DNA from: Candidatus Goldiibacteriota bacterium HGW-Goldbacteria-1
Lineage (GTDB): Bacteria > Oederibacteriota > PGYV01
Assembly (NCBI GenBank): GCA_002839855.1
Contig: PGYV01000002.1
Span: 249,191-313,190, forward strand
DNA length: 64,000 nt
Direction of reading: 5' to 3'
This document shows positions 3,111-41,078 of the stretch, piece by piece. The position numbers and the translations under genes are program-made. How positions within the stretch are numbered: position 1 is the stretch's first letter; every line of letters starts with the position of its first letter. Below the pieces are notes generated by a model. That model saw only the letters and a program-made list of their open reading frames with translations, did no database searches and had not been told where the DNA came from.

Positions 3111-4282
3111 ATTATTTTCTCTCGGATGAAGAACAGATGATTGTGGAAACAAGCCGTGAACTTGCGGTTAAAAAGGTAAAGCCGGTAAGGGAACACTATG
3201 ACGAAGCCGGGATTTTCCCGTGGGACATAGTAAAAGAAATGGCAAACCTTGGACTTTGCGGCCTTTATATTCCGGAAGAGTACGGCGGAATGTCAGGCGA
3301 AGGCAGTAAGGGAATAATGCAGCTTGTACTGTGCGTTGAAGAAATGTCAAAAATTTGCGGCGGTATATCGCTTGCAATGGCGGCATCCGCGCTGGGAACT
3401 TTCCCTATACTTCTGGGAGCCACGGCCGAACAGAAAAAGAAATATCTTCCGGATATCGCTTCCGGTAAAAAACTTGCAGCATTCGGCCTTACAGAAGCCG
3501 GTGCAGGATCAGACGCAGGTGCGATGAGGACAACAGCGGTTAAAAAAGGAAATAAATATGTAATAAACGGTACAAAACAGTGGATTACAAACGGCAGCGA
3601 AGCCGAGACTTATACAGTTTTTGCAATAACAGATAAATCCAAAGGCACCAGGGGCTGTTCCTGTTTTATTGTTGAAAAAGGGACACCGGGATTCACATTT
3701 GGAAAGAAAGAAAATAAGATGGGCATCAGGGCTTCGGCCACCACAGAACTTATTTTTCAGGACTGCGAAGTTCCGGAGGAAAACCTTGTGGGCGGAAAAG
3801 AAGGAATGGGCTTTATACACGCGGTAGGCACGCTTAACCATTCAAGGCCGGGAGTTGCGGCACAGGCGCTTGGTATTGCAGCGGGCGCTCTTGATGAAGC
3901 TCTGGCTTATTCCAGGCAAAGGGAGCAGTTTGGCACAAAAATATCCTCTTTCCAGGCTGTTCAGCATATGCTTGCCAATATGGCGGTTGAAGTTGAAGCG
4001 GCAAGAGGGCTTATCTATAATGTAGCCCGCGGGGTTGATAAAGGAGCGGTAGATTTTGCTAAAGATTCGGCTATGTGCAAATATTACGCGTCAGAAGTGG
4101 CAATGAGGGTCACGACAAATGCGGTTCAGGTATTCGGCGGATACGGATATATGAAAGAATACCCCGTTGAAAAAATGATGAGGGACGCAAAAATCACACA
4201 GATATATGAAGGCACCAGCCAGATACAGTTAAACGAAATAGCCGCAAAGCTTATTAAAGAACACGCGATGAAGAAAAAATAA
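3107..4282 (+). CDS. Acyl-CoA dehydrogenase family protein
   Basis: FAD enzyme that oxidises an acyl-CoA to the enoyl-CoA, passing electrons to an electron-transfer flavoprotein. The 391-residue length, FAD-binding motifs AFGLTEAGAGSDAGA and WITNGSEAETY, and the C-terminal QIYEGTSQIQ motif with candidate catalytic base Glu368 match the short-chain type family. The start is a GTG overlapping the rnc stop, with an AAGGAGG site inside the end of rnc. The etfB and etfA genes follow, which strongly supports the electron partner. Substrate chain length cannot be read from the sequence. Its place behind fatty acid synthesis genes could mean lipid remodelling or a butyryl-CoA-type reaction. Confidence 0.92.
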   Translation: MNYFLSDEEQMIVETSRELAVKKVKPVREHYDEAGIFPWDIVKEMANLGLCGLYIPEEYGGMSGEGSKGIMQLVLCVEEMSKICGGISLAMAASALGTFPILLGATAEQKKKYLPDIASGKKLAAFGLTEAGAGSDAGAMRTTAVKKGNKYVINGTKQWITNGSEAETYTVFAITDKSKGTRGCSCFIVEKGTPGFTFGKKENKMGIRASATTELIFQDCEVPEENLVGGKEGMGFIHAVGTLNHSRPGVAAQALGIAAGALDEALAYSRQREQFGTKISSFQAVQHMLANMAVEVEAARGLIYNVARGVDKGAVDFAKDSAMCKYYASEVAMRVTTNAVQVFGGYGYMKEYPVEKMMRDAKITQIYEGTSQIQLNEIAAKLIKEHAMKKK

Positions 4283-30265: not shown

Positions 30266-33200
30266 ATGCGCGGATTTTTTACGGATTTACCCCGAAAAAT
30301 ACAGGAAATTTTTACAATAAATCTGCCGGCAAAAAAAATAATAAATGAACAGCCTCTAAGGGCTGAACTTTTCAGTATGGATCAGTTTGAACTGCATGCC
30401 AAATTTCTGGCAGAGAAACATGATGTAAGCCTGAAAAAAACCCGGGAAAAACTCCTTATCCGCCTGAAAGATAATGAACAGATACTGCTGCGTACAAATA
30501 AAATGCTTAATGAAGCGGATAAAGCAAAAAATACCATTACTCCTGCCGGAGAATGGATTCTGGATAATTATTACCTTATAGAAGAACAGATACGCCTTGC
30601 GCAGAAATTCTTCCCAAAAGTATACAGCCGCGAACTTCCCGGCTTGTCTTCAGGGCCTATGTCCGGTTATCCAAGGGTTTATGATATTGCAATGGAAATA
30701 GTATCGCATGGCGACGGCCGTATTGACGTTAAGGGTTTAACCGCGTTTATTTCATCTTATCAGACAATAAAAAAATTGAAACTTGGAGAGTTATGGGCAA
30801 TTCCCATTATGCTGCGGCTTGCTCTTATAGAAAATCTAAGGCGTGTTTCTGTTTACATGATGGTTACGCAGGTGGACAGGGATAAGGCGGATTACTGGGC
30901 AAACAGAATTCTGGAAGTGGCGGTTAAAGATACTGATAATTATATTCACGAGATAGCGGCAATGGCAAAAGATAATCCCCCCATGTCGGACTCTTTTGTG
31001 TCGGAATTTGTAAGGCGGCTTCAGGGGCAGAGCGCGAACATTGATCTTCCTTTAAACTGGCTGGAAAAGAAACTGTCAGAGCAGGGCGAAACAGTGGAAA
31101 GGCTGATACGATCAACCAGCCGTAAACAGGCGGCTAATCAGGTTTCTATTGCTAATACTATAGAAAGTTTAAGGCTGCTGGAAGGCACCGACTGGCATGA
31201 ATTTGTTGAAGCGCTAAGCGCTGTTGAAGAGGTTTTAAGAAAAGACCCGTATGGTGTTTACGGCACAATGTCTTTTGAAACCCGAGATGCATACCGTCAT
31301 GTCATTGAAAAGTTGGCAAACAAGAGCAGGCTTACAGAAGAAGATGTGGCTTTACGGGCTTTGCAGATTGCGTCTCTGGCGGCGGCAGATAATAAGGGTA
31401 AAGATGCATCCGCGCATATAGGGTATTATCTTATTGACAAAGGGTTAAAACAGCTTTATAGCGAGCTGAAAATAAGGTTTCCTATAAGCGCGCTTTTACA
31501 GGCCAAAAAGACGGCATTGTCAATGTCATTATATACGGGGTCTATTGTATTATTTACATGTATCGGTTTAGCGGCAGGTTTGTTTTTAGCGGGCATATTA
31601 GGGCTGCGCGGCTGGCTGAATTACGCTATTCTTTCAATACCCCTTCTTTTTGTCACAAGCCAGACAGTTGTTTCCATTATTAACTGGATATCCACTATTA
31701 TCGTAAAACCAAATAATCTGCCAAAAATGGATTTTTCTAAAGCAATAACAGCCGGCGCGCATACGCTTGTAGTTGTGCCCACGCTGCTTAATAACAGGCA
31801 GGGGATTGAATCGCTTATAGAAAATCTGGAAGTCAGCTACCTTGCGAATAAAGATCCGCAAATAAGTTTTGCACTTCTGACTGATTTTAAAGATGCCCTG
31901 CAGGAAAACATGCCGGAAGATGAATCGCTTCTGTCTTTTGTAATCGAAGGGGTAGAAACGTTAAACAACAAATATCCGGGCAAAGACGCTGAAATATTCT
32001 ATTTTTTTCACAGGAACCGTAAATGGAATCCGCGTGAAAAGTTGTGGATGGCATATGAAAGAAAAAGGGGAAAACTTTCCGAACTTAACATGCTTCTTAG
32101 GGGCAATGGCAAAGATAAATTCAGTGTTATAAAAGGTGATGTACAGCACCTGCAGGACGTAAAATATGTAATTACGCTGGATACAGATACAAGAATGCCA
32201 AGAGATGCGGTGAAAAACCTGGTGTCTATTATCTGCCATCCGCTTAACAAACCCGTGTATGATGAAGAAAAGAAACGCGTGGTATCCGGATACGGAATTC
32301 TTCAGCCAAGGGTGGAAGCCGGCTATCCGGGGGAAAATCCATCCGCTTTTGTGAAAATTTTTGGCGGCGAAACAGGCATTGACCCGTATACAAAAGCCGT
32401 TTCAGATGTTTATCAGGACCTGTTTTTTGAAGGTTCATTTATAGGAAAAGGCCTTTATGAAGTCGATGCTTTTGAAAAATGTTTAAAAGACCGGCTGCCG
32501 GAAAATCTGATACTTAGCCATGATATGCTTGAAGGGTGTTATGCCCGCTGTGCCCTTGTGACCGAAGTTGAACTGCATGAAAAGTACCCTACGGCATATT
32601 TAAAGGATGTCAGCCGCAGGCGCCGCTGGATACGCGGCGACTGGCAGATAACACAATGGCTGTTTTCAACAGTTCCCGGTTTTAACGGTAAAAAAGTAAA
32701 AAATCCGCTGTCTTTTTTATCGCAGTGGAAAATACTTGATAACTTAAGGCGCAGCCTTGTTCCTGTCTCTGTTTTTATAATATTTTTATCCGGATGGATA
32801 ATGTTTAAATCTTCGTGGCCATGGACTATATACATTATACTGCTTTCAGGCCTGCCTATACCGGTAAAATTGATGTATGACGCGGGAAGAAAACCGGAAG
32901 GCATAAGCATGGAATCCCATATGTCGGCATTATCTGCTTCGTTAACAAACCGAGGCCTGCAGTTTTTGCTTTCTTTTGTATTTATAGTGTATGAAGCCTA
33001 TTACAATATCGCAGCCGTGGTTACCACTTTCTGGCGTAAGTTTATCACGCGCAGTAAGCTGCTGGAATGGAATACTTTCGCGGAAACGGAACTTGCGGGA
33101 AATATTACCGCGTTTGATTACGTCAGAAAAATGATTGCGGCTCCGTTTGCGGCGTTGTTATGCGCCGCATCGGGATGCGTAAAATCGGACCTGCCTGCGG

Positions 33201-36200
33201 TTATGATATTGATTTCATGGATGGCTTCTCCTTTAGTTGCTTATATTATAAGCAGGCCGGTTTCATTACGCCGCGACGTACTGTCCGCGTCAAAGAAACT
33301 CTTTTTAAGGATGTGCGCAAGAAAAACGTGGAGATTCTTTGAAGAATTTGTGACCGCCCGAGACAATTTTTTGCCGCCGGATAATTTCCAGGAAGAACCA
33401 TTGGGCATGCCCGCGCGCAGGACTTCTCCCACAAACATTGGGCTGTCTCTTTTGTCCAATCTCACGGCATATGATTTTGGCTACATTTCAATGGCGGTAA
33501 TGCTTGACAGGACAAAGAAAACACTGGGCACCATGAACGCGATGGAAAAATACAGGGGTCATTTTTACAATTGGTACAGCACAGAGACCTTAAAACCCCT
33601 GCTTCCGCTGTATATTTCTTCAGTTGACAGCGGCAATCTTACAGGCAATTTACTTGTTATGCGTTCGGGAATTCTGGAAATGCGCGGGGAAAAGATTATT
33701 TCTTTTAAAATAATTGACGGCCTTTTGGATACGCTTAATTTAATCGTGGAAAGTTTTAAGGAGCCGGTAAAAAACACGTCTGCCGCATCCAGGGAAACCG
33801 CTGTAAGAATAGAAGCAAGGCTTAAGCGGATGGGTGATAAACTTTTATCTGTGCCTGAAACACTTCCGGAATTGCACATGCTGATACGCCATTTGTCAGC
33901 CGAGTGTTCCAAAATGATAATTGACCTTGATTTTATGGGGCTTGTAAAAACCAAGAAATGGGGCATGGCTTTTGAAAAACATTGTTATCACTGCCTTGAA
34001 GATATGGTATATATGGCGCCATGGCTGCAGCTTCCTACGGAAATACCGGGCATGTGGGATAAAGATGAAGAAAAGCAGAACGAAATGCGCGCTATTTTAC
34101 GGGAAGAATTAAGGCATCTTGAAACGATACCTGTTCTTAACGATGCGGCAAGGCTGGAATTAAAACTTATTCCGTTAATAGATAAAATTCTTAACTCTTC
34201 TGAATACAGTAATGATGAAAAAACATGGTTTATGGCTCTTAAAGACGCGGTATCACGCGCGGGGACAAGGGCGTATGAACGGATAGCTATAATTGAAGAA
34301 CTGGCGCTTTCCTGCGGTGAAATGTCAAATGTTGAATATGATTTTCTTTATAATAAGTCCAAACATTTGTTTCATATAGGATATAACGCGGGTGAAAGAA
34401 AAACTGATGCTTCGTGCTATGACCTTTTAGCGTCGGAATCTCGCCTGGCAAGTTATATTGCCATTGCTCAGGGAAGCGTTCCTCAGGAACACTGGTTTAT
34501 GCTTGGAAGGCTGCTGTCAAAACGCGGCGGAGATCCGGTTTTGGTATCGTGGGGCGGTTCTATGTTTGAATACCTGATGCCGCTTCTTATAATGCCGGAT
34601 TACGAAGGTACGCTTCTTAACAGGACTTATAAAGCCATAGTGGGAAGGCAGATAGACTACGCAAGGCGCAATGAAGTGCCATGGGGCATATCAGAATCAG
34701 GATATAATAAAGTTGATGTTACCATGGCTTATCAGTACCGTTCATTTGGCGTGCCGGATTCTGGCTTTAAAAGGGGATTGGCAGAAGACCTTGTAATTGC
34801 CCCATACGCGTCTGCAATGGCTTTAATGGTGGAACCGGAAAAAGCATGTGAAAATCTGGAACTTTTGAAAGATAACGGATTTGAAGGGGATTATGGTTTC
34901 TATGAAGCCATAGATTACACGCCGGCGCGCCTTGCCACGGATGAAAATTACTCGGTGGTAAAATCATATATGGCGCATCATCATGGTATGTCGTTTTTAT
35001 CTTTCGCTTATGTCCTTTTAAACAGGCCTATGCAAAGGCGTTTTTTGGCTGATCCAATGTTTAAGGCCACAGAACTTCTGCTGCAGGAAAGGGTTCCTGT
35101 GGATGTGCCTTTTCTTTATGACACAGAAGTCACAGGGCCGCTTAGGCAGGTGGAAGAAAGGGAAGCTTTACTGCGTGTATTTACAAATCCGGATACTCCT
35201 ACGCCGGAAATACACCTTTTATCAAACGGAAAATACAGCGTTATGGTTACAAACGCCGGCGCCGGGTACAGCAGATGGAAAAATATCGCGGTAACCAGAT
35301 GGCGTGAAGACGCGGCTTTGGATAATGAAGGCACATTTGTGTACTTAAGGGATGTTAAGACCGGGGATTTTTGGTCTGCCGCGCACCAGCCGACACTGAA
35401 AAAATCAAAAAATTACGAAGCGGTTTTTTCGCAATCACGCGCGGAATTTAAAAGGCGTGATTTTAATATTGACACGCATACAGAGATAGTTGTGTCGCCG
35501 GAAGATGACGTGGAATTACGCAGAATCAACATAACCAACAGGTCGCGCGATAAACGCCGGATAGAGTTTACCAGCTACGCGGAAGCGGTGCTTAATTATC
35601 CTGAAGCGGATCAGGCACACAGCGCTTTCAGCAATCTCTTTATACAAACGGAAGTTATTAAACCTTATCAGGCTATAATCTGCGGCAGAAGGCCGCGTTC
35701 TGAAAATGAAGCGTATCCTTTTATACTTCATCTTATGGCTGTTCATGGCAATTCAACAACGCCCGCTTCATACGAAACTGACCGAAGTAAATTTATAGGG
35801 CGCTGCGGTACGACGGCAGACCCCGCGGCAATGCACGATAAGGGAGTCCTATCGGGTACTCAAGGGGCGGTAATTGACCCTGTGCTAAGCATACGAGGCT
35901 GTGTGGAACTTGATTCCCAGGAATCGGCTGTGATTGATTATGTTACGGCAGTATGCGGCAGTATGGAAGACGCAAAAAAACTGATTGAAAAATACAGGGA
36001 CCGTAACCTTGCGGACAGGGTTTTTAATCTGTCCTGGACACACGGGCAGGTGGCGCTGCAGCAGATAAACGCGACAGAAGCGGAAGCGCAGCTTTATGGG
36101 CGCCTTGCCGGCGCTATTGTATATGCCAATCCGGCGTGGCGCGCGGCCGCAAGTGTACTTAAAAAGAACCTTAGGGGGCAGCCGGATTTATGGGGGTACA

Positions 36201-39031
36201 GTATTTCAGGCGACCTGCCTATAGTTCTGGTGCGCGTGGAAGACCCGGAAAATCTTGATATAATCGACCGGCTTATTCAGGCGCATTCATATTGGCGTAT
36301 GAAAGGTTTAAGGGTGGATCTTATTATATGGAACGAGGATCATTCAGTCTATAGGGATGATATGAGCGAGAAGATAAACAGCCTTATATCCAAGAACGGT
36401 CCGGGCATGTCAAACCAGCCCGGAGGAATATTTTTAAGGCGCGCCGATCAGATGTCCGAAGAGGACAAAATACTTATGCAGGCCGTGGCGCGGATAATAA
36501 TTACAGACAGGGGCGGAACACTGGCTGAACAGATAGAACGCATGTCGCACATAAGGCCGCAGCGGCCGCAGTTAAACGTAACTAAAAGGTTTGGTATTGA
36601 AAAAGAAGATGAAGGTATCAGCGAGCGTAAAGACCTTGAATATTTTAACGGACTGGGCGGGTTTACCCGCGACGGCAGAGAGTATGTCATTAATACAGCG
36701 CCCGGCAGAAGAACGCCGGCGCCATGGGCAAATGTGCTGGCAAATAAAAACTTTGGAACGGTAATATCAGAAAGCGGAAGCGCCTATACCTGGAGCGAGA
36801 ATGCACACGAGTTCCGCCTGACCCCATGGAAAAATGACCCTGTTACCGATACCTGCGGAGAAGCAATGTACATCAGGGATGAGGAATCCGGGCGTTTTTG
36901 GTCGCCTACACCGCTTCCCGCGTCGGGAAAAACAGGATATGTATCGCGCCATGGTTTTGGTTACAGTGTTTTCGAACATAGAGAAAACGGGATAGAATCG
37001 GAACTGACTGTTTTTGTCTCTCTTGAACATCCTGTAAAGTTTTCTGTTTTAAAAATAAAAAATCATTCCGGGCGCAGGCGCAGTTTGTCAGCCACATCAT
37101 ACAATGAACTGGTAATGGGCACGCACAGGGATAAATATCACATGCATATTATTACAGAGGTTGACCCTAAAAGCGGCGCTATGCTTGCGTACAACCATTA
37201 CAATAAGGAATTTCCGGACAGGGTTGTATTTCTTGATACAAGCGAGACCGCCCGTTTTGTAACAGGAGACAGGCACGAGTTTTTGGGAAGAAACGGGTCT
37301 ATGGGTTCGCCGGCTGCAATGTATAAAGACAGGCTGTCGGGTAAAACCGGCGCGGGATATGACCCCTGTGTAAGCGCGCAGGTTAAATTTGAATTAAATG
37401 ATAATGAAGAAAAGGAAATAGTATTTCTATTTGGTTCAGGCAAAAGCCCTGACGAGGCGCGTGAAATACTTCAGAGCTATAACGGTTCAGCATTGGTGCA
37501 TAAAGAACTTGAAAATGTATGGGAACACTGGAAAAGAAGCCTTGGCGTAATTTATGTTGAAACACCGGATAATTCCGTTAATTTTCTTGTGAACGGCTGG
37601 CTTCAGTATCAGGTAATAAGCTGCCGTTTGTGGGGGCGCAGCGGTTATTATCAGTCAGGCGGCGCTTATGGTTTCAGGGATCAGCTGCAGGATGTTATGG
37701 CGCTTATGCATTCTCATCCGGAAATGATAAGGGAACAGCTGCTTACTTTTGCCTCTCATCAGTTTACAGAAGGTGATGTTCAGCACTGGTGGCATCCGCC
37801 GTCAGGAAGGGGCGTCAGAACAAAGTGTTCTGATGACTATTTATGGCTGCCTTTGGTTGCTTCTGTATATGTTATGGAAATCGGAGATACGGGAGTATTA
37901 AATGAAAAAGTGCGTTTTCTGTATGGGCCGCAGGTAAATCCCGATGACGAGTCATATTACGGCATGCCGGGGATATCAGAAAACCGGGGAACTCTTTATG
38001 AACATTGTGTTGCGGCAGTCAGGCACGCTTTAAGATACGGAATACACGGGCTTCCGCTTATTGGCAGCGGAGACTGGAATGATGGCATGAATCTGGTTGG
38101 TAAAGACGGAAAAGGCGAAAGTGTCTGGCTGGCATTCTTTCTGCATAAGGTACTTATGTCTATGTCGCAAATGGCAAAGCAGCACGGGGATGAAACTTTT
38201 TCCGATGAATGCCTTGAAGAAGCCGCAAAGCTTTCTAAAAATATAGATAAAAACGCGTGGGATGGAAAGTGGTATCTGCGGGCTTATTTTGACAATGGAG
38301 AGCCGCTGGGTTCTTCGTTAAATACAGAGTGCCGTATAGATTCTATTCCGCAGTCATGGGCCGTTATTTCCGGTGCGGCAGATCCGGCAAGGGCAAAAGA
38401 AGCAATGGACAGCGTGGATAAACTGCTTGTTGACAGGCAGGGCATGCTGATAAAACTTTTTACCCCGCCTTTTGATAAAACTTTAAATAATCCGGGGTAT
38501 ATAAAAGGCTATGTGCCGGGCGTAAGGGAAAATGGGGGGCAGTATACACACGCTGCTGTGTGGTCTGTAATGGCATTTGCCGCGTTAAAAGACAGATCAC
38601 GGGCGTGGGAACTGTTGAATTTAATAAACCCCATCAGGCACAGCGATACGGCAGAAAAATCCGCCTTATATAAGGTGGAACCATTTGTTATGGCCGCTGA
38701 TGTGTACGGTGTTGAATCTAACACGGGCCGCGGCGGCTGGACCTGGTACACGGGTTCTGCTTCGTGGATGTATCAGCTTATTGTCAAGAATCTGCTGGGA
38801 ATTCAGCTTAAAGTTGACCGGTTATATTTTGAACCGTGCCTTCCGAAAGACTGGCAGTCATTTAAGGTTCATTACCGTTTCCGGGAAACTTTTTATCACA
38901 TATCACTGCAAAGGTCGGGGGCAGAAGATAAAGTAATATCGGTAACTGTTGACGGCAACGCGCATCAGGATTTATCCATCCCGCTTGTTGATGACAGAAT
39001 AGAACATACGGTGGAAGTGGTAATAGGGTGA
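30266..39031 (+). CDS. Cyclic beta-1,2-glucan synthase (NdvB/Cgs-like)
   Basis: 2921 residues, close to the size of the known NdvB and Cgs enzymes. The layout is intact. The N-terminal region and first membrane segments (about 415-470) are followed by a GT84-type glycosyltransferase with the DTDTRMP motif at residue 639 and the RRRRWIRGDWQ segment near 784. More membrane segments follow, then a glucoamylase-like region with SESGYNKVDVTMAYQYRSFG. The C-terminal GH94-type phosphorylase regions include GSGDWNDGMN, where the candidate catalytic Asp is about residue 2606. In proteobacteria these enzymes initiate, elongate, cyclise and trim periplasmic beta-1,2-glucans involved in osmoadaptation. 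Here it is a single gene with its own promoter and an AAAGGAGGAG site. Confidence 0.93.
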   Translation: MRGFFTDLPRKIQEIFTINLPAKKIINEQPLRAELFSMDQFELHAKFLAEKHDVSLKKTREKLLIRLKDNEQILLRTNKMLNEADKAKNTITPAGEWILDNYYLIEEQIRLAQKFFPKVYSRELPGLSSGPMSGYPRVYDIAMEIVSHGDGRIDVKGLTAFISSYQTIKKLKLGELWAIPIMLRLALIENLRRVSVYMMVTQVDRDKADYWANRILEVAVKDTDNYIHEIAAMAKDNPPMSDSFVSEFVRRLQGQSANIDLPLNWLEKKLSEQGETVERLIRSTSRKQAANQVSIANTIESLRLLEGTDWHEFVEALSAVEEVLRKDPYGVYGTMSFETRDAYRHVIEKLANKSRLTEEDVALRALQIASLAAADNKGKDASAHIGYYLIDKGLKQLYSELKIRFPISALLQAKKTALSMSLYTGSIVLFTCIGLAAGLFLAGILGLRGWLNYAILSIPLLFVTSQTVVSIINWISTIIVKPNNLPKMDFSKAITAGAHTLVVVPTLLNNRQGIESLIENLEVSYLANKDPQISFALLTDFKDALQENMPEDESLLSFVIEGVETLNNKYPGKDAEIFYFFHRNRKWNPREKLWMAYERKRGKLSELNMLLRGNGKDKFSVIKGDVQHLQDVKYVITLDTDTRMPRDAVKNLVSIICHPLNKPVYDEEKKRVVSGYGILQPRVEAGYPGENPSAFVKIFGGETGIDPYTKAVSDVYQDLFFEGSFIGKGLYEVDAFEKCLKDRLPENLILSHDMLEGCYARCALVTEVELHEKYPTAYLKDVSRRRRWIRGDWQITQWLFSTVPGFNGKKVKNPLSFLSQWKILDNLRRSLVPVSVFIIFLSGWIMFKSSWPWTIYIILLSGLPIPVKLMYDAGRKPEGISMESHMSALSASLTNRGLQFLLSFVFIVYEAYYNIAAVVTTFWRKFITRSKLLEWNTFAETELAGNITAFDYVRKMIAAPFAALLCAASGCVKSDLPAVMILISWMASPLVAYIISRPVSLRRDVLSASKKLFLRMCARKTWRFFEEFVTARDNFLPPDNFQEEPLGMPARRTSPTNIGLSLLSNLTAYDFGYISMAVMLDRTKKTLGTMNAMEKYRGHFYNWYSTETLKPLLPLYISSVDSGNLTGNLLVMRSGILEMRGEKIISFKIIDGLLDTLNLIVESFKEPVKNTSAASRETAVRIEARLKRMGDKLLSVPETLPELHMLIRHLSAECSKMIIDLDFMGLVKTKKWGMAFEKHCYHCLEDMVYMAPWLQLPTEIPGMWDKDEEKQNEMRAILREELRHLETIPVLNDAARLELKLIPLIDKILNSSEYSNDEKTWFMALKDAVSRAGTRAYERIAIIEELALSCGEMSNVEYDFLYNKSKHLFHIGYNAGERKTDASCYDLLASESRLASYIAIAQGSVPQEHWFMLGRLLSKRGGDPVLVSWGGSMFEYLMPLLIMPDYEGTLLNRTYKAIVGRQIDYARRNEVPWGISESGYNKVDVTMAYQYRSFGVPDSGFKRGLAEDLVIAPYASAMALMVEPEKACENLELLKDNGFEGDYGFYEAIDYTPARLATDENYSVVKSYMAHHHGMSFLSFAYVLLNRPMQRRFLADPMFKATELLLQERVPVDVPFLYDTEVTGPLRQVEEREALLRVFTNPDTPTPEIHLLSNGKYSVMVTNAGAGYSRWKNIAVTRWREDAALDNEGTFVYLRDVKTGDFWSAAHQPTLKKSKNYEAVFSQSRAEFKRRDFNIDTHTEIVVSPEDDVELRRINITNRSRDKRRIEFTSYAEAVLNYPEADQAHSAFSNLFIQTEVIKPYQAIICGRRPRSENEAYPFILHLMAVHGNSTTPASYETDRSKFIGRCGTTADPAAMHDKGVLSGTQGAVIDPVLSIRGCVELDSQESAVIDYVTAVCGSMEDAKKLIEKYRDRNLADRVFNLSWTHGQVALQQINATEAEAQLYGRLAGAIVYANPAWRAAASVLKKNLRGQPDLWGYSISGDLPIVLVRVEDPENLDIIDRLIQAHSYWRMKGLRVDLIIWNEDHSVYRDDMSEKINSLISKNGPGMSNQPGGIFLRRADQMSEEDKILMQAVARIIITDRGGTLAEQIERMSHIRPQRPQLNVTKRFGIEKEDEGISERKDLEYFNGLGGFTRDGREYVINTAPGRRTPAPWANVLANKNFGTVISESGSAYTWSENAHEFRLTPWKNDPVTDTCGEAMYIRDEESGRFWSPTPLPASGKTGYVSRHGFGYSVFEHRENGIESELTVFVSLEHPVKFSVLKIKNHSGRRRSLSATSYNELVMGTHRDKYHMHIITEVDPKSGAMLAYNHYNKEFPDRVVFLDTSETARFVTGDRHEFLGRNGSMGSPAAMYKDRLSGKTGAGYDPCVSAQVKFELNDNEEKEIVFLFGSGKSPDEAREILQSYNGSALVHKELENVWEHWKRSLGVIYVETPDNSVNFLVNGWLQYQVISCRLWGRSGYYQSGGAYGFRDQLQDVMALMHSHPEMIREQLLTFASHQFTEGDVQHWWHPPSGRGVRTKCSDDYLWLPLVASVYVMEIGDTGVLNEKVRFLYGPQVNPDDESYYGMPGISENRGTLYEHCVAAVRHALRYGIHGLPLIGSGDWNDGMNLVGKDGKGESVWLAFFLHKVLMSMSQMAKQHGDETFSDECLEEAAKLSKNIDKNAWDGKWYLRAYFDNGEPLGSSLNTECRIDSIPQSWAVISGAADPARAKEAMDSVDKLLVDRQGMLIKLFTPPFDKTLNNPGYIKGYVPGVRENGGQYTHAAVWSVMAFAALKDRSRAWELLNLINPIRHSDTAEKSALYKVEPFVMAADVYGVESNTGRGGWTWYTGSASWMYQLIVKNLLGIQLKVDRLYFEPCLPKDWQSFKVHYRFRETFYHISLQRSGAEDKVISVTVDGNAHQDLSIPLVDDRIEHTVEVVIG

Positions 39032-39035
39032 ACTT

Positions 39036-39105
39036 AGTTACAAGTTACAAGTTACAAGTTACAAGTTACAAGTTACAAGTTACAAGTGGCAAGTTACAAG
39101 TTACA
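39036..39105 (+). repeat. Heptamer array AGTTACA x10
   Basis: Ten tandem units of AGTTACA; seven are perfect, the eighth reads AGTGGCA, and two more perfect units follow. A second, degenerate array of four units in the opposite orientation occurs at 39498-39525. The two arrays flank the four-helix-bundle gene. Confidence 0.95.
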
Positions 39106-39135
39106 GTAATAACTTAAAAAAATAGATGACTAAAG

Positions 39136-39543
39136 TTATATGCGATTATGTTTAGCTGTTTTAATTGATGCGTGTATCATGGCTGCTATTTCGTCAGCTT
39201 CTTTGTATAGAACTGTTACACTAGACTCTATTACTAAAGCTGATTCAACTAATAATTCAAACCAATGCTTGCTTTCATCAATTTCTTCGGCAACAATGCC
39301 CAGCTTTGCGATAAATTCAGCAGTAGAACGTGCTTTTTTAGCGGCACGGTAATTAGCCGACACCGACGTTGCGCTTCTTAAAAGTTGATTGCCTAACGAT
39401 TTATAAATATGATCATAAGGAAAGTTTTTTACAAGTTTTATGACATCAACTGCAAATTTCTTTGTCCTGTTTTTTAACTGATCTTTTTCATTAAGTTGTA
39501 ACTTGTCACCTGTTACTTGCAACTTTATATCCCCACTTTCCAA
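39136..39543 (-). CDS. Four-helix-bundle protein (S23 / 23S IVP family)
   Basis: 135 residues read from a TTG; there is no internal ATG before the conserved part, so the true start is unsure. The core [33 protein letters not shown] and [17 protein letters not shown] is typical of the small four-helix-bundle family that includes proteins encoded in 23S rRNA intervening sequences and Avd-like proteins of retroelements. The first residues ([11 protein letters not shown]) are encoded by a degenerate heptamer array, probably not original protein sequence. The gene overlaps the 3' end of comM by 19 bp. Function is not established for stand-alone members. Confidence 0.8.
39498..39525 (-). repeat. 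Degenerate inverted heptamer array (4 units)
   Basis: Four 7-base units read on the minus strand as AAGTTGC, AAGTAAC, AGGTGAC and AAGTTAC. They are the inverse of the long array at 39036-39105 and code for the N-terminal KLQVTGDKL of the four-helix-bundle frame. The array abuts the comM stop codon. Confidence 0.75.
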
Positions 39544-41078
39544 TGCTCTCTGTCCAGGCTTCTGTACTGAATGGCTTCCGCAATGTGGGTGGATGTAATA
39601 TCCTCCGCGCCTTCTAAATCCGCTATTGTCCGTGATACTTTTAAGACACGGTCGTAGGCACGGGCGGATAGCCCTAAATTCTCTATTGCTGTTTTTAATA
39701 ATGCCTGCGATTCGTTATCCAGCTGGCAGAACTTTCTTGTGTGCCTTGGGCCCATGTGGGCGTTAAAGAAAACTCCGGATTTTTCAAACCTTTTTTCCTG
39801 GGCTTTACGCGCTGCGTTTACGCGCTGCCGTATTGACGCTGAAGTTTCCGCCTCTGCTTTTGACGCCAGTTCGTTATATTCCACTACCGGGACTTCCACA
39901 TGAATGTCAATTCTGTCCAGAAGCGGGCCGGATATTTTGGACATATATTTTTCACGCTGAGCCGGCGTGCAGGAACAGCTTTTGGTAGGGTGCGTGGAAT
40001 ATCCGCAGGGGCAGGGGTTCATTGCGGCAAACAATACAAACCTTGCCGGATAAGTTATAGAAACAGCCGCGCGTGAAATTGTCACATGCCCGTCCTCTAA
40101 CGGCTGCCTTAAAACTTCCAGCACGTTTCTGTTAAATTCAGGCAGCTCATCAAGGAATAAAACGCCGTTATGCGAAAGCGACACTTCGCCGGGTCGAGGT
40201 ACGGCGCCGCCGCCTATTAACCCGGCGTCAGAAATTGTATGGTGCGGTGAGCGGAATGGGCGTGTGGCAATAAGCGCGGTTTTTTCGCGCATGTATCCGG
40301 ATACGCTGTGTATTTTAGTTGTTTCAATTGCTTCGGTTAAATTCATTTCCGGCAGGATAGTGGGGAACCTGCGGGCAAGCATTGTCTTGCCGGAACCGGG
40401 AGGCCCTATTAAAATTATGTTATGTCCGCCGGCGGCGGCTATTTCCATTGACCGCTTAACGTGCTGCTGGCCTTTAACCTCTGAAAAATCAATGTGATAA
40501 ACTGAAGCCCTGGAAAAAACTTCTGTGATGTCTATTTCGTGCGCGTCAAGGGTAATTTCCCCGTTTAAAAAGTCAAATACCTGCCTGAAGTGTTTTACCG
40601 CAAATACATCAATTCCTTCCACCACAGCTGATTCATCGGCGTTGGCAAAGGGGACGATAATGCCTTTATAACCAAGGTTCTTTGCAAGCAGCGACATTGA
40701 CAATGCGCCTTTGACAGAGTTAATAGAGCCGTCAAGCGACAACTCGCCGGTTATCATGTAGTTTTCAAGTTTAGCGGTGTTTAAGGTGCCGCAGGCGGCT
40801 AAAATGCCTATGGCTATGGGCAGGTCAAACGAAGGCCCTTCTTTTTTGCGGTCAGCAGGGGATAAATTCAGGGTAATTTTCTGGTTGGGGGGAAACTCTA
40901 TCATGGAATTGGTAATGGCCGACTTCACCCTGTCTTTGCTTTCTTTGACGGAAGTATCGGGAAGGCCGACAATTGAAAAACCCGGAATTCCAAAGGTCAT
41001 GTCTGTTTCTACTTCCACTTCATAAGCGTCAATGCCTAAAATAGATGCGGATTTAACTTTGCTTAACACAATAATCAC
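39525..41078 (-). CDS. comM: ComM/YifB-type magnesium-chelatase-like AAA+ ATPase
   Basis: 517 residues. The N-terminal ChlI-like domain ([40 protein letters not shown]) is followed by the AAA+ domain with Walker A GPPGSGKT at residues 225-232, the [12 protein letters not shown] Walker B region, [14 protein letters not shown], and the C-terminal helical Mg-chelatase domain. Known relatives are hexameric helicase-like proteins that promote branch migration during natural transformation. The start is GTG at 41078; a second GTG three codons in is possible. A GCCGCATGCGGC palindrome lies upstream (41090-41101). Confidence 0.93.

What the first reader, a model, noticed from the sequence alone, without database searches (positions are those of the whole stretch)
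39036..39525. Four-helix-bundle gene framed by inverted heptamer arrays, like a stand-alone 23S-IVS unit
Ten AGTTACA units lie at 39036-39105 and four units in opposite orientation at 39498-39525, with an S23/IVP-family gene between them, so the transcript's two ends could base-pair. Intervening sequences in 23S rRNA have the same plan (complementary ends, four-helix-bundle ORF). Here the unit sits at the 3' end of comM. The heptamers even code for the start of the protein, so its real start is unclear.
Basis: partly seen in the sequence, partly recalled or inferred. Interest (0 to 1): 0.7.

Follow-up and report, generated by a model that had tools for sequence, protein, structure and literature searches.

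The report
S23 gene cassette with inverted heptamer arms
A small gene of the family found inside split bacterial 23S rRNAs sits here between two mirror-image arrays of a 7-base repeat, and the same framed gene recurs between ordinary genes in at least a dozen bacterial phyla, so it looks like an undescribed, portable relative of rRNA intervening sequences that lives in messenger RNAs.

Summary
In detail: ten AGTTACA units (39036-39105) and about four degenerate inverted units (39497-39524) frame an S23/IVP gene (PF05635) abutting the comM stop codon. It is not a local curiosity. Of 77 nearest S23 homologues from a dozen or more phyla, 70 have significant inverted repeats on both sides (controls 1/149); so do 46/90 S23 genes of the phylum (controls 3/165). 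The arms are usually 4-5 degenerate heptamers, alike within a locus and different between loci. S23 is in operon sense (110 versus 3). In the window's genome and in G033, S23-less hairpins share the local heptamer "dialect" and polarity of the S23 cassette. Within Mucilaginibacter the nuoC-nuoD gap is occupied, arm-only or empty. S23 is under purifying selection and folds like the S23/Avd pentamer subunit. A true 23S IVS (Coxiella) has the same parts: S23 ORF, 28-bp terminal stem, tandem heptamers before S23 (PMC4990558). I read it as an IVS-like cassette carried in mRNAs, with S23-less derivatives. RNA excision is inferred; a G-U test gave no support for selection on RNA pairing, and how it inserts is unknown. 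No reverse transcriptase is present, and RAYT transposases carry other ends.

The parts
39036..39105 (+). Distal arm (downstream of S23): 10 tandem AGTTACA units; it starts 5 bases after the stop of the convergent gene 30266-39031
39497..39524 (-). Proximal arm (upstream of S23): 4 degenerate units, inverted, abutting the comM stop codon and continuing into the S23 reading frame
39136..39522 (-). S23/IVP four-helix-bundle gene, likely TTG start at 39522 (longest frame starts at 39543)
   Evidence: AlphaFold2 pLDDT about 98 over the four helices; PDB 2RLD/2GSC by fold
39172..39477 (-). Conserved S23 domain (PF05635 match)
   Evidence: C2:288362-288667
39525..41078 (-). comM/yifB, same-strand host gene just upstream of the cassette
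30266..39031 (+). Convergent neighbour (2921-aa ORF) ending 5 bases before the distal arm

Best explanation
The feature is one copy of a widespread IVS-like cassette: an S23 gene enclosed by two inverted arms made of tandem degenerate heptamers, placed directly behind the stop codon of a same-strand gene and expressed from that gene's transcription. Shown here: the architecture, its recurrence across phyla, its orientation, locus-specific arms that change together, purifying selection on S23, occupied/arm-only/empty states of one site, and S23-less hairpins with the same genome-specific heptamers. Inferred: in the transcript the arms fold into a roughly 30-bp stem around the S23 ORF that RNase III can cut, as in 23S IVSs, freeing S23 mRNA from the host message; S23, expected to form a pentameric ring like Xcc0516 and related to the DGR protein Avd, binds the arms or their stem; S23-less hairpins are non-autonomous derivatives maintained in trans. 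The insertion mechanism is unknown.
For: Inverted repeats flank 70/77 close S23 homologues at p<=0.01 (controls 1/149) and 46/90 S23 genes of the phylum (controls 3/165). Matched arms score 19.9 against 10.5 for mismatched pairs, and 0/75 control ORFs reach the cut-off. Lag-7 identity is 0.45-0.58 only at about -100..-20 and +20..+110 from S23, with peaks at 7, 14, 21. S23 is in sense between tandem genes 110 to 3. One intergenic site is occupied, arm-only or empty in different species of one genus. Arms of six nuoC-nuoD copies show 5 pairs changed on both sides, although synonymous sites of the neighbouring nuoC are saturated (pS 0.7-0.9). S23 is under purifying selection: dN 0.012/dS 0.344 and 0.056/0.407. 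S23-less hairpins with the same dialect and polarity: 11 of 15 sampled array sites in G000 and the sampled sites in G033. Coxiella 23S IVS: S23 ORF, 28-bp terminal stem, tandem heptamers GACAGAT before S23p, RNase III cut at the first repeat (PMC4990558). Fold: 2RLD and 2GSC (pentamers), Avd 4DWL and DGR RNP 8UB7.
Against: Arm mismatches show no excess of sense-strand G-U over A-C (335 v 340; strict 83 v 114), and the compensated pairs never show a one-sided G-U state, so selection on RNA pairing is not supported; copying between arms or protein-binding sites would fit as well. The folded transcript is only 2.3 sd more stable than shuffles. No cleavage data exist. The window's two arms are unequal (10 v 4 units). 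About half of the phylum's S23 genes lack clear arms. No unit was seen inserting: the Mucilaginibacter states may be losses of an old copy, and the comM locus is complicated by a comM 3' duplication in G002.
Confidence: 0.6

Rival explanations
1. The arms are DNA-level binding or recombination sites, not an RNA stem: S23 rings bind tandem heptamers, and arms and solo hairpins spread and are homogenised by recombination or an unknown transposase. In effect a gene-plus-hairpin system like RAYT-REPIN with S23 as the trans factor.
For: Genome-specific dialects shared by S23 cassettes and S23-less hairpins; arms change together without G-U intermediates; constant polarity of hairpins.
Against: S23 has no known catalytic activity; no transposition event was seen; S23 is tied to the host gene's sense strand (110 v 3), which a DNA element need not be.
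Confidence: 0.3
2. Two independent things: intergenic heptamer satellites of this genus expand by slippage in gaps between genes, and an S23 gene happens to lie in one such gap.
For: 768 pattern hits in this genome, mostly without S23; only 2 of its 6 S23 genes carry AGTTACA-type arms.
Against: Arms of the same design surround 70/77 homologues in unrelated phyla against 1/149 controls; G002 retains the S23 copy with arms. It explains array length here, not the association.
Confidence: 0.06
3. S23 here is a host-adapted regulator of its operon (for example of comM expression), and the arms are ordinary attenuator or mRNA-stability hairpins.
For: Purifying selection on S23; cassette almost always behind a same-strand gene; possible translational coupling to comM.
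Against: Host genes differ from locus to locus (comM, nuoC-nuoD, a surA-like/pdxA-like pair and others by sequence inspection) and the cassette comes and goes within a genus.
Confidence: 0.1

Closest known systems
23S rRNA intervening sequence (IVS) with S23 ORF, e.g. Coxiella burnetii, Leptospira
   Same: S23 ORF in the loop, complementary termini (28-bp stem in Coxiella, about 29-32 bp here), tandem heptamers just upstream of S23 (Coxiella GACAGAT; read in another register GATGACA, close to AGTGACA/GGTGACA here), sporadic distribution, ORF-less versions exist
   Different: Not in rRNA: no rRNA match in 20 S23 loci including this one; lies between protein genes; both arms are heptamer arrays; cleavage untested
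RAYT-REPIN systems
   Same: One gene flanked by inverted elements, many short hairpin derivatives, genome-specific sequence dialects
   Different: No HUH/Y1 transposase in the cassette; the RAYT-type genes of this genus carry other terminal sequences
DGR accessory protein Avd (PDB 4DWL, 8UB7)
   Same: Same four-helix-bundle fold (TM-score about 0.70)
   Different: No reverse transcriptase (PF00078) in G000, G001, G002, G007, G033, G041; no template/variable repeats seen
Heptameric repeats of other bacteria: TAACTGA in Beggiatoaceae (PMC4679880), STRR in cyanobacteria
   Same: Tandem heptamers in intergenic regions
   Different: Reported as direct repeats without a framed S23 gene; whether they are solo arms was not tested here

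Membership tests
S23/IVP protein family (PF05635, TIGR02436) | Significant match to the family model and four-helix-bundle fold | tested here: met
   (66.7 bits over a cut-off of 33.8; 89.6 over 24); fold
23S rRNA intervening sequence | Located inside an rRNA gene | tested here: not met
   Lies between comM and a convergent ORF; no rRNA model hit
23S rRNA intervening sequence | Complementary termini enclosing an S23 ORF | tested here: met
23S rRNA intervening sequence | Excision from the precursor RNA by RNase III | not testable with these tools
   Needs RNA data; the RNA-pairing selection test was negative
DGR (Avd) | Reverse transcriptase in the genome, next to avd | tested here: not met
   no RVT_1 in G000
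RAYT-REPIN | Heptamer arrays at the ends of a Y1 (PF01797) transposase gene | tested here: not met
   both G000 Y1 genes have other terminal repeats and no heptamers nearby

The most novel reading that the evidence does not exclude
S23 proteins are the trans-acting factor of a previously unrecognised class of bacterial mobile gene-plus-hairpin system, without transposase or reverse transcriptase, whose heptamer arms (about one unit per subunit of the S23 ring) are recognised, copied and homogenised genome-wide; rRNA IVSs are the special case that landed in rRNA.
Probability: 0.3. Interest if true: 0.92.

Novelty: new variant of a known kind. Interest (0 to 1): 0.77.

Why it matters
S23/IVP genes are widespread, uncharacterised, and named after rare rRNA insertions. 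This gives them a defined genetic unit with ends, polarity, non-autonomous derivatives and candidate ligands, so the old questions of what S23 does and how IVSs spread become directly testable in harmless lab bacteria.

Tried and rejected
RAYT-REPIN as mobiliser and DGR/reverse transcriptase rejected. An early idea that each array is a 3'-end element of its neighbouring gene was dropped because palindromes also fill gaps between tandem genes (L043, L046). A single-arm period-7 threshold was too strict for degenerate units (25/78 upstream arms) and was replaced by a shuffle test on the two flanks. A G-U asymmetry test for RNA-level selection was negative. A 24-sequence S23 alignment was too diverse for the collection scan. 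Literature: searches for the heptamer strings and for S23 with heptamers found only the Coxiella IVS paper; subscription journals are not held. Codirection could not be calibrated on the window because nearly all its genes point the same way (44/46).

Full report
OBSERVATION. The window holds ten tandem AGTTACA units at 39036-39105 (period 7, score 126) and four degenerate inverted units at 39497-39524. Between them, on the minus strand, is an S23/IVP gene (PF05635 E=2.5e-18; TIGR02436 E=1.4e-25). The 14-mer of two units occurs 11 times (two mismatches allowed) against 0.41 expected. The proximal arm abuts the comM stop; the distal arm starts 5 bases after the stop of the convergent 2921-aa ORF. 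Arm bases are read as the N-terminus of S23. AlphaFold2 gives a four-helix bundle (pLDDT about 98) with residues 1-17 at low confidence, closest to S23 structures 2RLD and 2GSC and then to Avd 4DWL and the DGR complex 8UB7. 2GSC is a ring of five four-helix bundles, by the title of Lin et al. 2006 as cited in PMC3936711.

THIS LOCUS IN RELATIVES. In G001 (98% identical comM) the place holds another gene (193 aa) that overlaps the comM end, and no S23 or heptamers. In G002 the cassette survives as a broken copy with both arms recognisable, behind a duplicated comM 3' end, 83% identical over about 740 bp. So the unit predates the G000/G002 split, is decaying in one species, and the longer G000 distal array looks like a recent expansion. 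The N-terminal extension and its TTG are shared.

HEPTAMERS IN THE GENOME. A degenerate unit, R-S-T-N-R-C-A three times over, hits 768 places in G000, 206 in G001, 57 in G002 and almost nothing in 38 further genomes of the phylum, with 0 hits for the reversed control in G000. Fifteen array sites were read: 13 are a plus run followed by a minus run (hairpins of constant polarity), and only two enclose S23, the window and C8. In G033 the heptamers GCTCACA/GCTGACA/GGTCACA form S23-less hairpins with short loops, and its S23 gene L082 has arms of the same units. Cassettes and hairpins of one genome thus share a dialect.

S23 GENES ELSEWHERE. In 41 relatives, 92 S23 hits over the cut-off were taken and their flanks read. 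Upstream flank against reverse-complemented downstream flank scores 19.9 on average when matched and 10.5 when flanks of different loci are paired; 43/91 reach the 99th percentile of mismatched pairs; 0/75 control ORFs do. The arms are locus-specific: AGTTAGG (L113), AGTTTTA (L075), AATTTTG (L118), GATTTAC/GATTGAC (L129), and so on. Some more distant S23 subfamilies use units of 8-10 bases. Eighty homologues (48-58% identical) were then fetched from genomes of Acidobacteria, Chloroflexi, Planctomycetes, Verrucomicrobia, Cyanobacteria, Bacteroidetes, Ignavibacteria, delta-, alpha- and other Proteobacteria, Nitrospinia, Omnitrophota, Poribacteria, Gemmatimonadetes and CPR groups. In a dinucleotide-shuffle test 70/77 have inverted repeats at p<=0.01, against 1/149 displaced controls; in the phylum set 46/90 against 3/165. 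Lag-7 identity is 0.45-0.58 just outside S23 and 0.25 elsewhere. Best period within arms is 7 in 66 of 78. Typical units are GATTTTG, GATTTTA, GATTGCG, GAATGCG.

ORIENTATION AND PLACE. Where S23 lies between two tandem host genes it is in their sense 110 times and antisense 3 times. Arms commonly begin at the upstream stop codon and end at the next start codon, so the cassette fills an intergenic gap and probably depends on outside transcription; no convincing promoter was seen at this locus.

OCCUPIED, ARM-ONLY AND EMPTY SITES. The nuoC-nuoD gap of Mucilaginibacter was read in about 90 genomes: seven contain S23 there, several keep one arm or arm remnants without S23, several are plain gaps of 30-60 bp, and others hold unrelated repeats. 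In the six copies aligned, five positions changed on both arms, none on one side only. Neighbouring nuoC is saturated at synonymous sites while arms stay nearly identical, so arms are constrained or repeatedly homogenised. S23 itself is under purifying selection.

HOW IT MAY WORK. The arms can form a stem around the ORF (MFE structure pairs them, z=-2.3). In Coxiella the IVS has a 28-bp terminal stem, S23p in the loop, two or three tandem heptamers GACAGAT before its start, and an RNase III cut at the first repeat (PMC4990558). The window cassette has every sequence part of this except the rRNA location. I therefore propose an IVS-like cassette whose transcript is cut in the arms. Against an RNA-only view, mismatches between arms show no bias toward sense-strand G-U pairs, and paired changes lack G-U intermediates, which fits copying between arms or protein-binding arrays. 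The fold relation to pentameric S23 and Avd suggests nucleic-acid binding by a ring; one heptamer per subunit is speculation.

ALTERNATIVES. No reverse transcriptase exists in G000 or most arm-bearing genomes tested, which speaks against a DGR. The two Y1 transposases of G000 have other terminal repeats, which speaks against RAYT-REPIN. Coincidence of satellites and S23 is made very unlikely by the cross-phylum test.

LIMITS. Nothing here shows RNA cleavage, protein binding or a new insertion event. Empty sites may be losses. About half of the phylum's S23 genes lack detectable arms. The literature library lacks most subscription journals, so an earlier description cannot be ruled out.

Noticed in passing
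L173 (G002:C66) 3810-3927; L174 (G007:C77); G015:C62; G036:C211: Duplicate comM 3'-end fragments lie near intact comM in several genomes, as if this gene's 3' end is a recurrent duplication or insertion point.
   Followed up: partly
L172, L173, L175, L176, L177: A second S23-like gene (about 160-193 aa, weak PF05635 match) overlaps or abuts the comM stop in most order relatives but is missing in the window's genome.
   Followed up: partly
L046 642-740; L386 (G002:C128): A different REP-like palindrome (GGTAGACGCGGGTCTTTAGCCCGCGGCAG) sits in the loop of one heptamer hairpin and also flanks a RAYT-type Y1 transposase gene.
   Followed up: partly
L063 (G007:C75): One S23 gene has a nested arrangement: inverted arrays of AACATAG/AACAAAG-type heptamers on each side, each side itself a palindrome.
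   Followed up: no
L057, L061, L088, L089, L110, L065: S23 subfamilies with other unit lengths: 8-mers (GATGCTTG), 9-mers (GTTTATAAA) and 10-mers (GTCTGTAAAA) in inverted arms.
   Followed up: no
Mucilaginibacter nuoC-nuoD gap, L284-L373: The gap is a general hotspot: besides S23 cassettes it holds several unrelated long palindromes (e.g. GTCATTGCGAGG...CCTCGCAATGAC) and other small ORFs in different species.
   Followed up: partly
L212 (Nostoc) 1501-1797: An S23 cassette with intact arms carries a stop codon inside S23, while the orthologous cassette L201 is intact.
   Followed up: no
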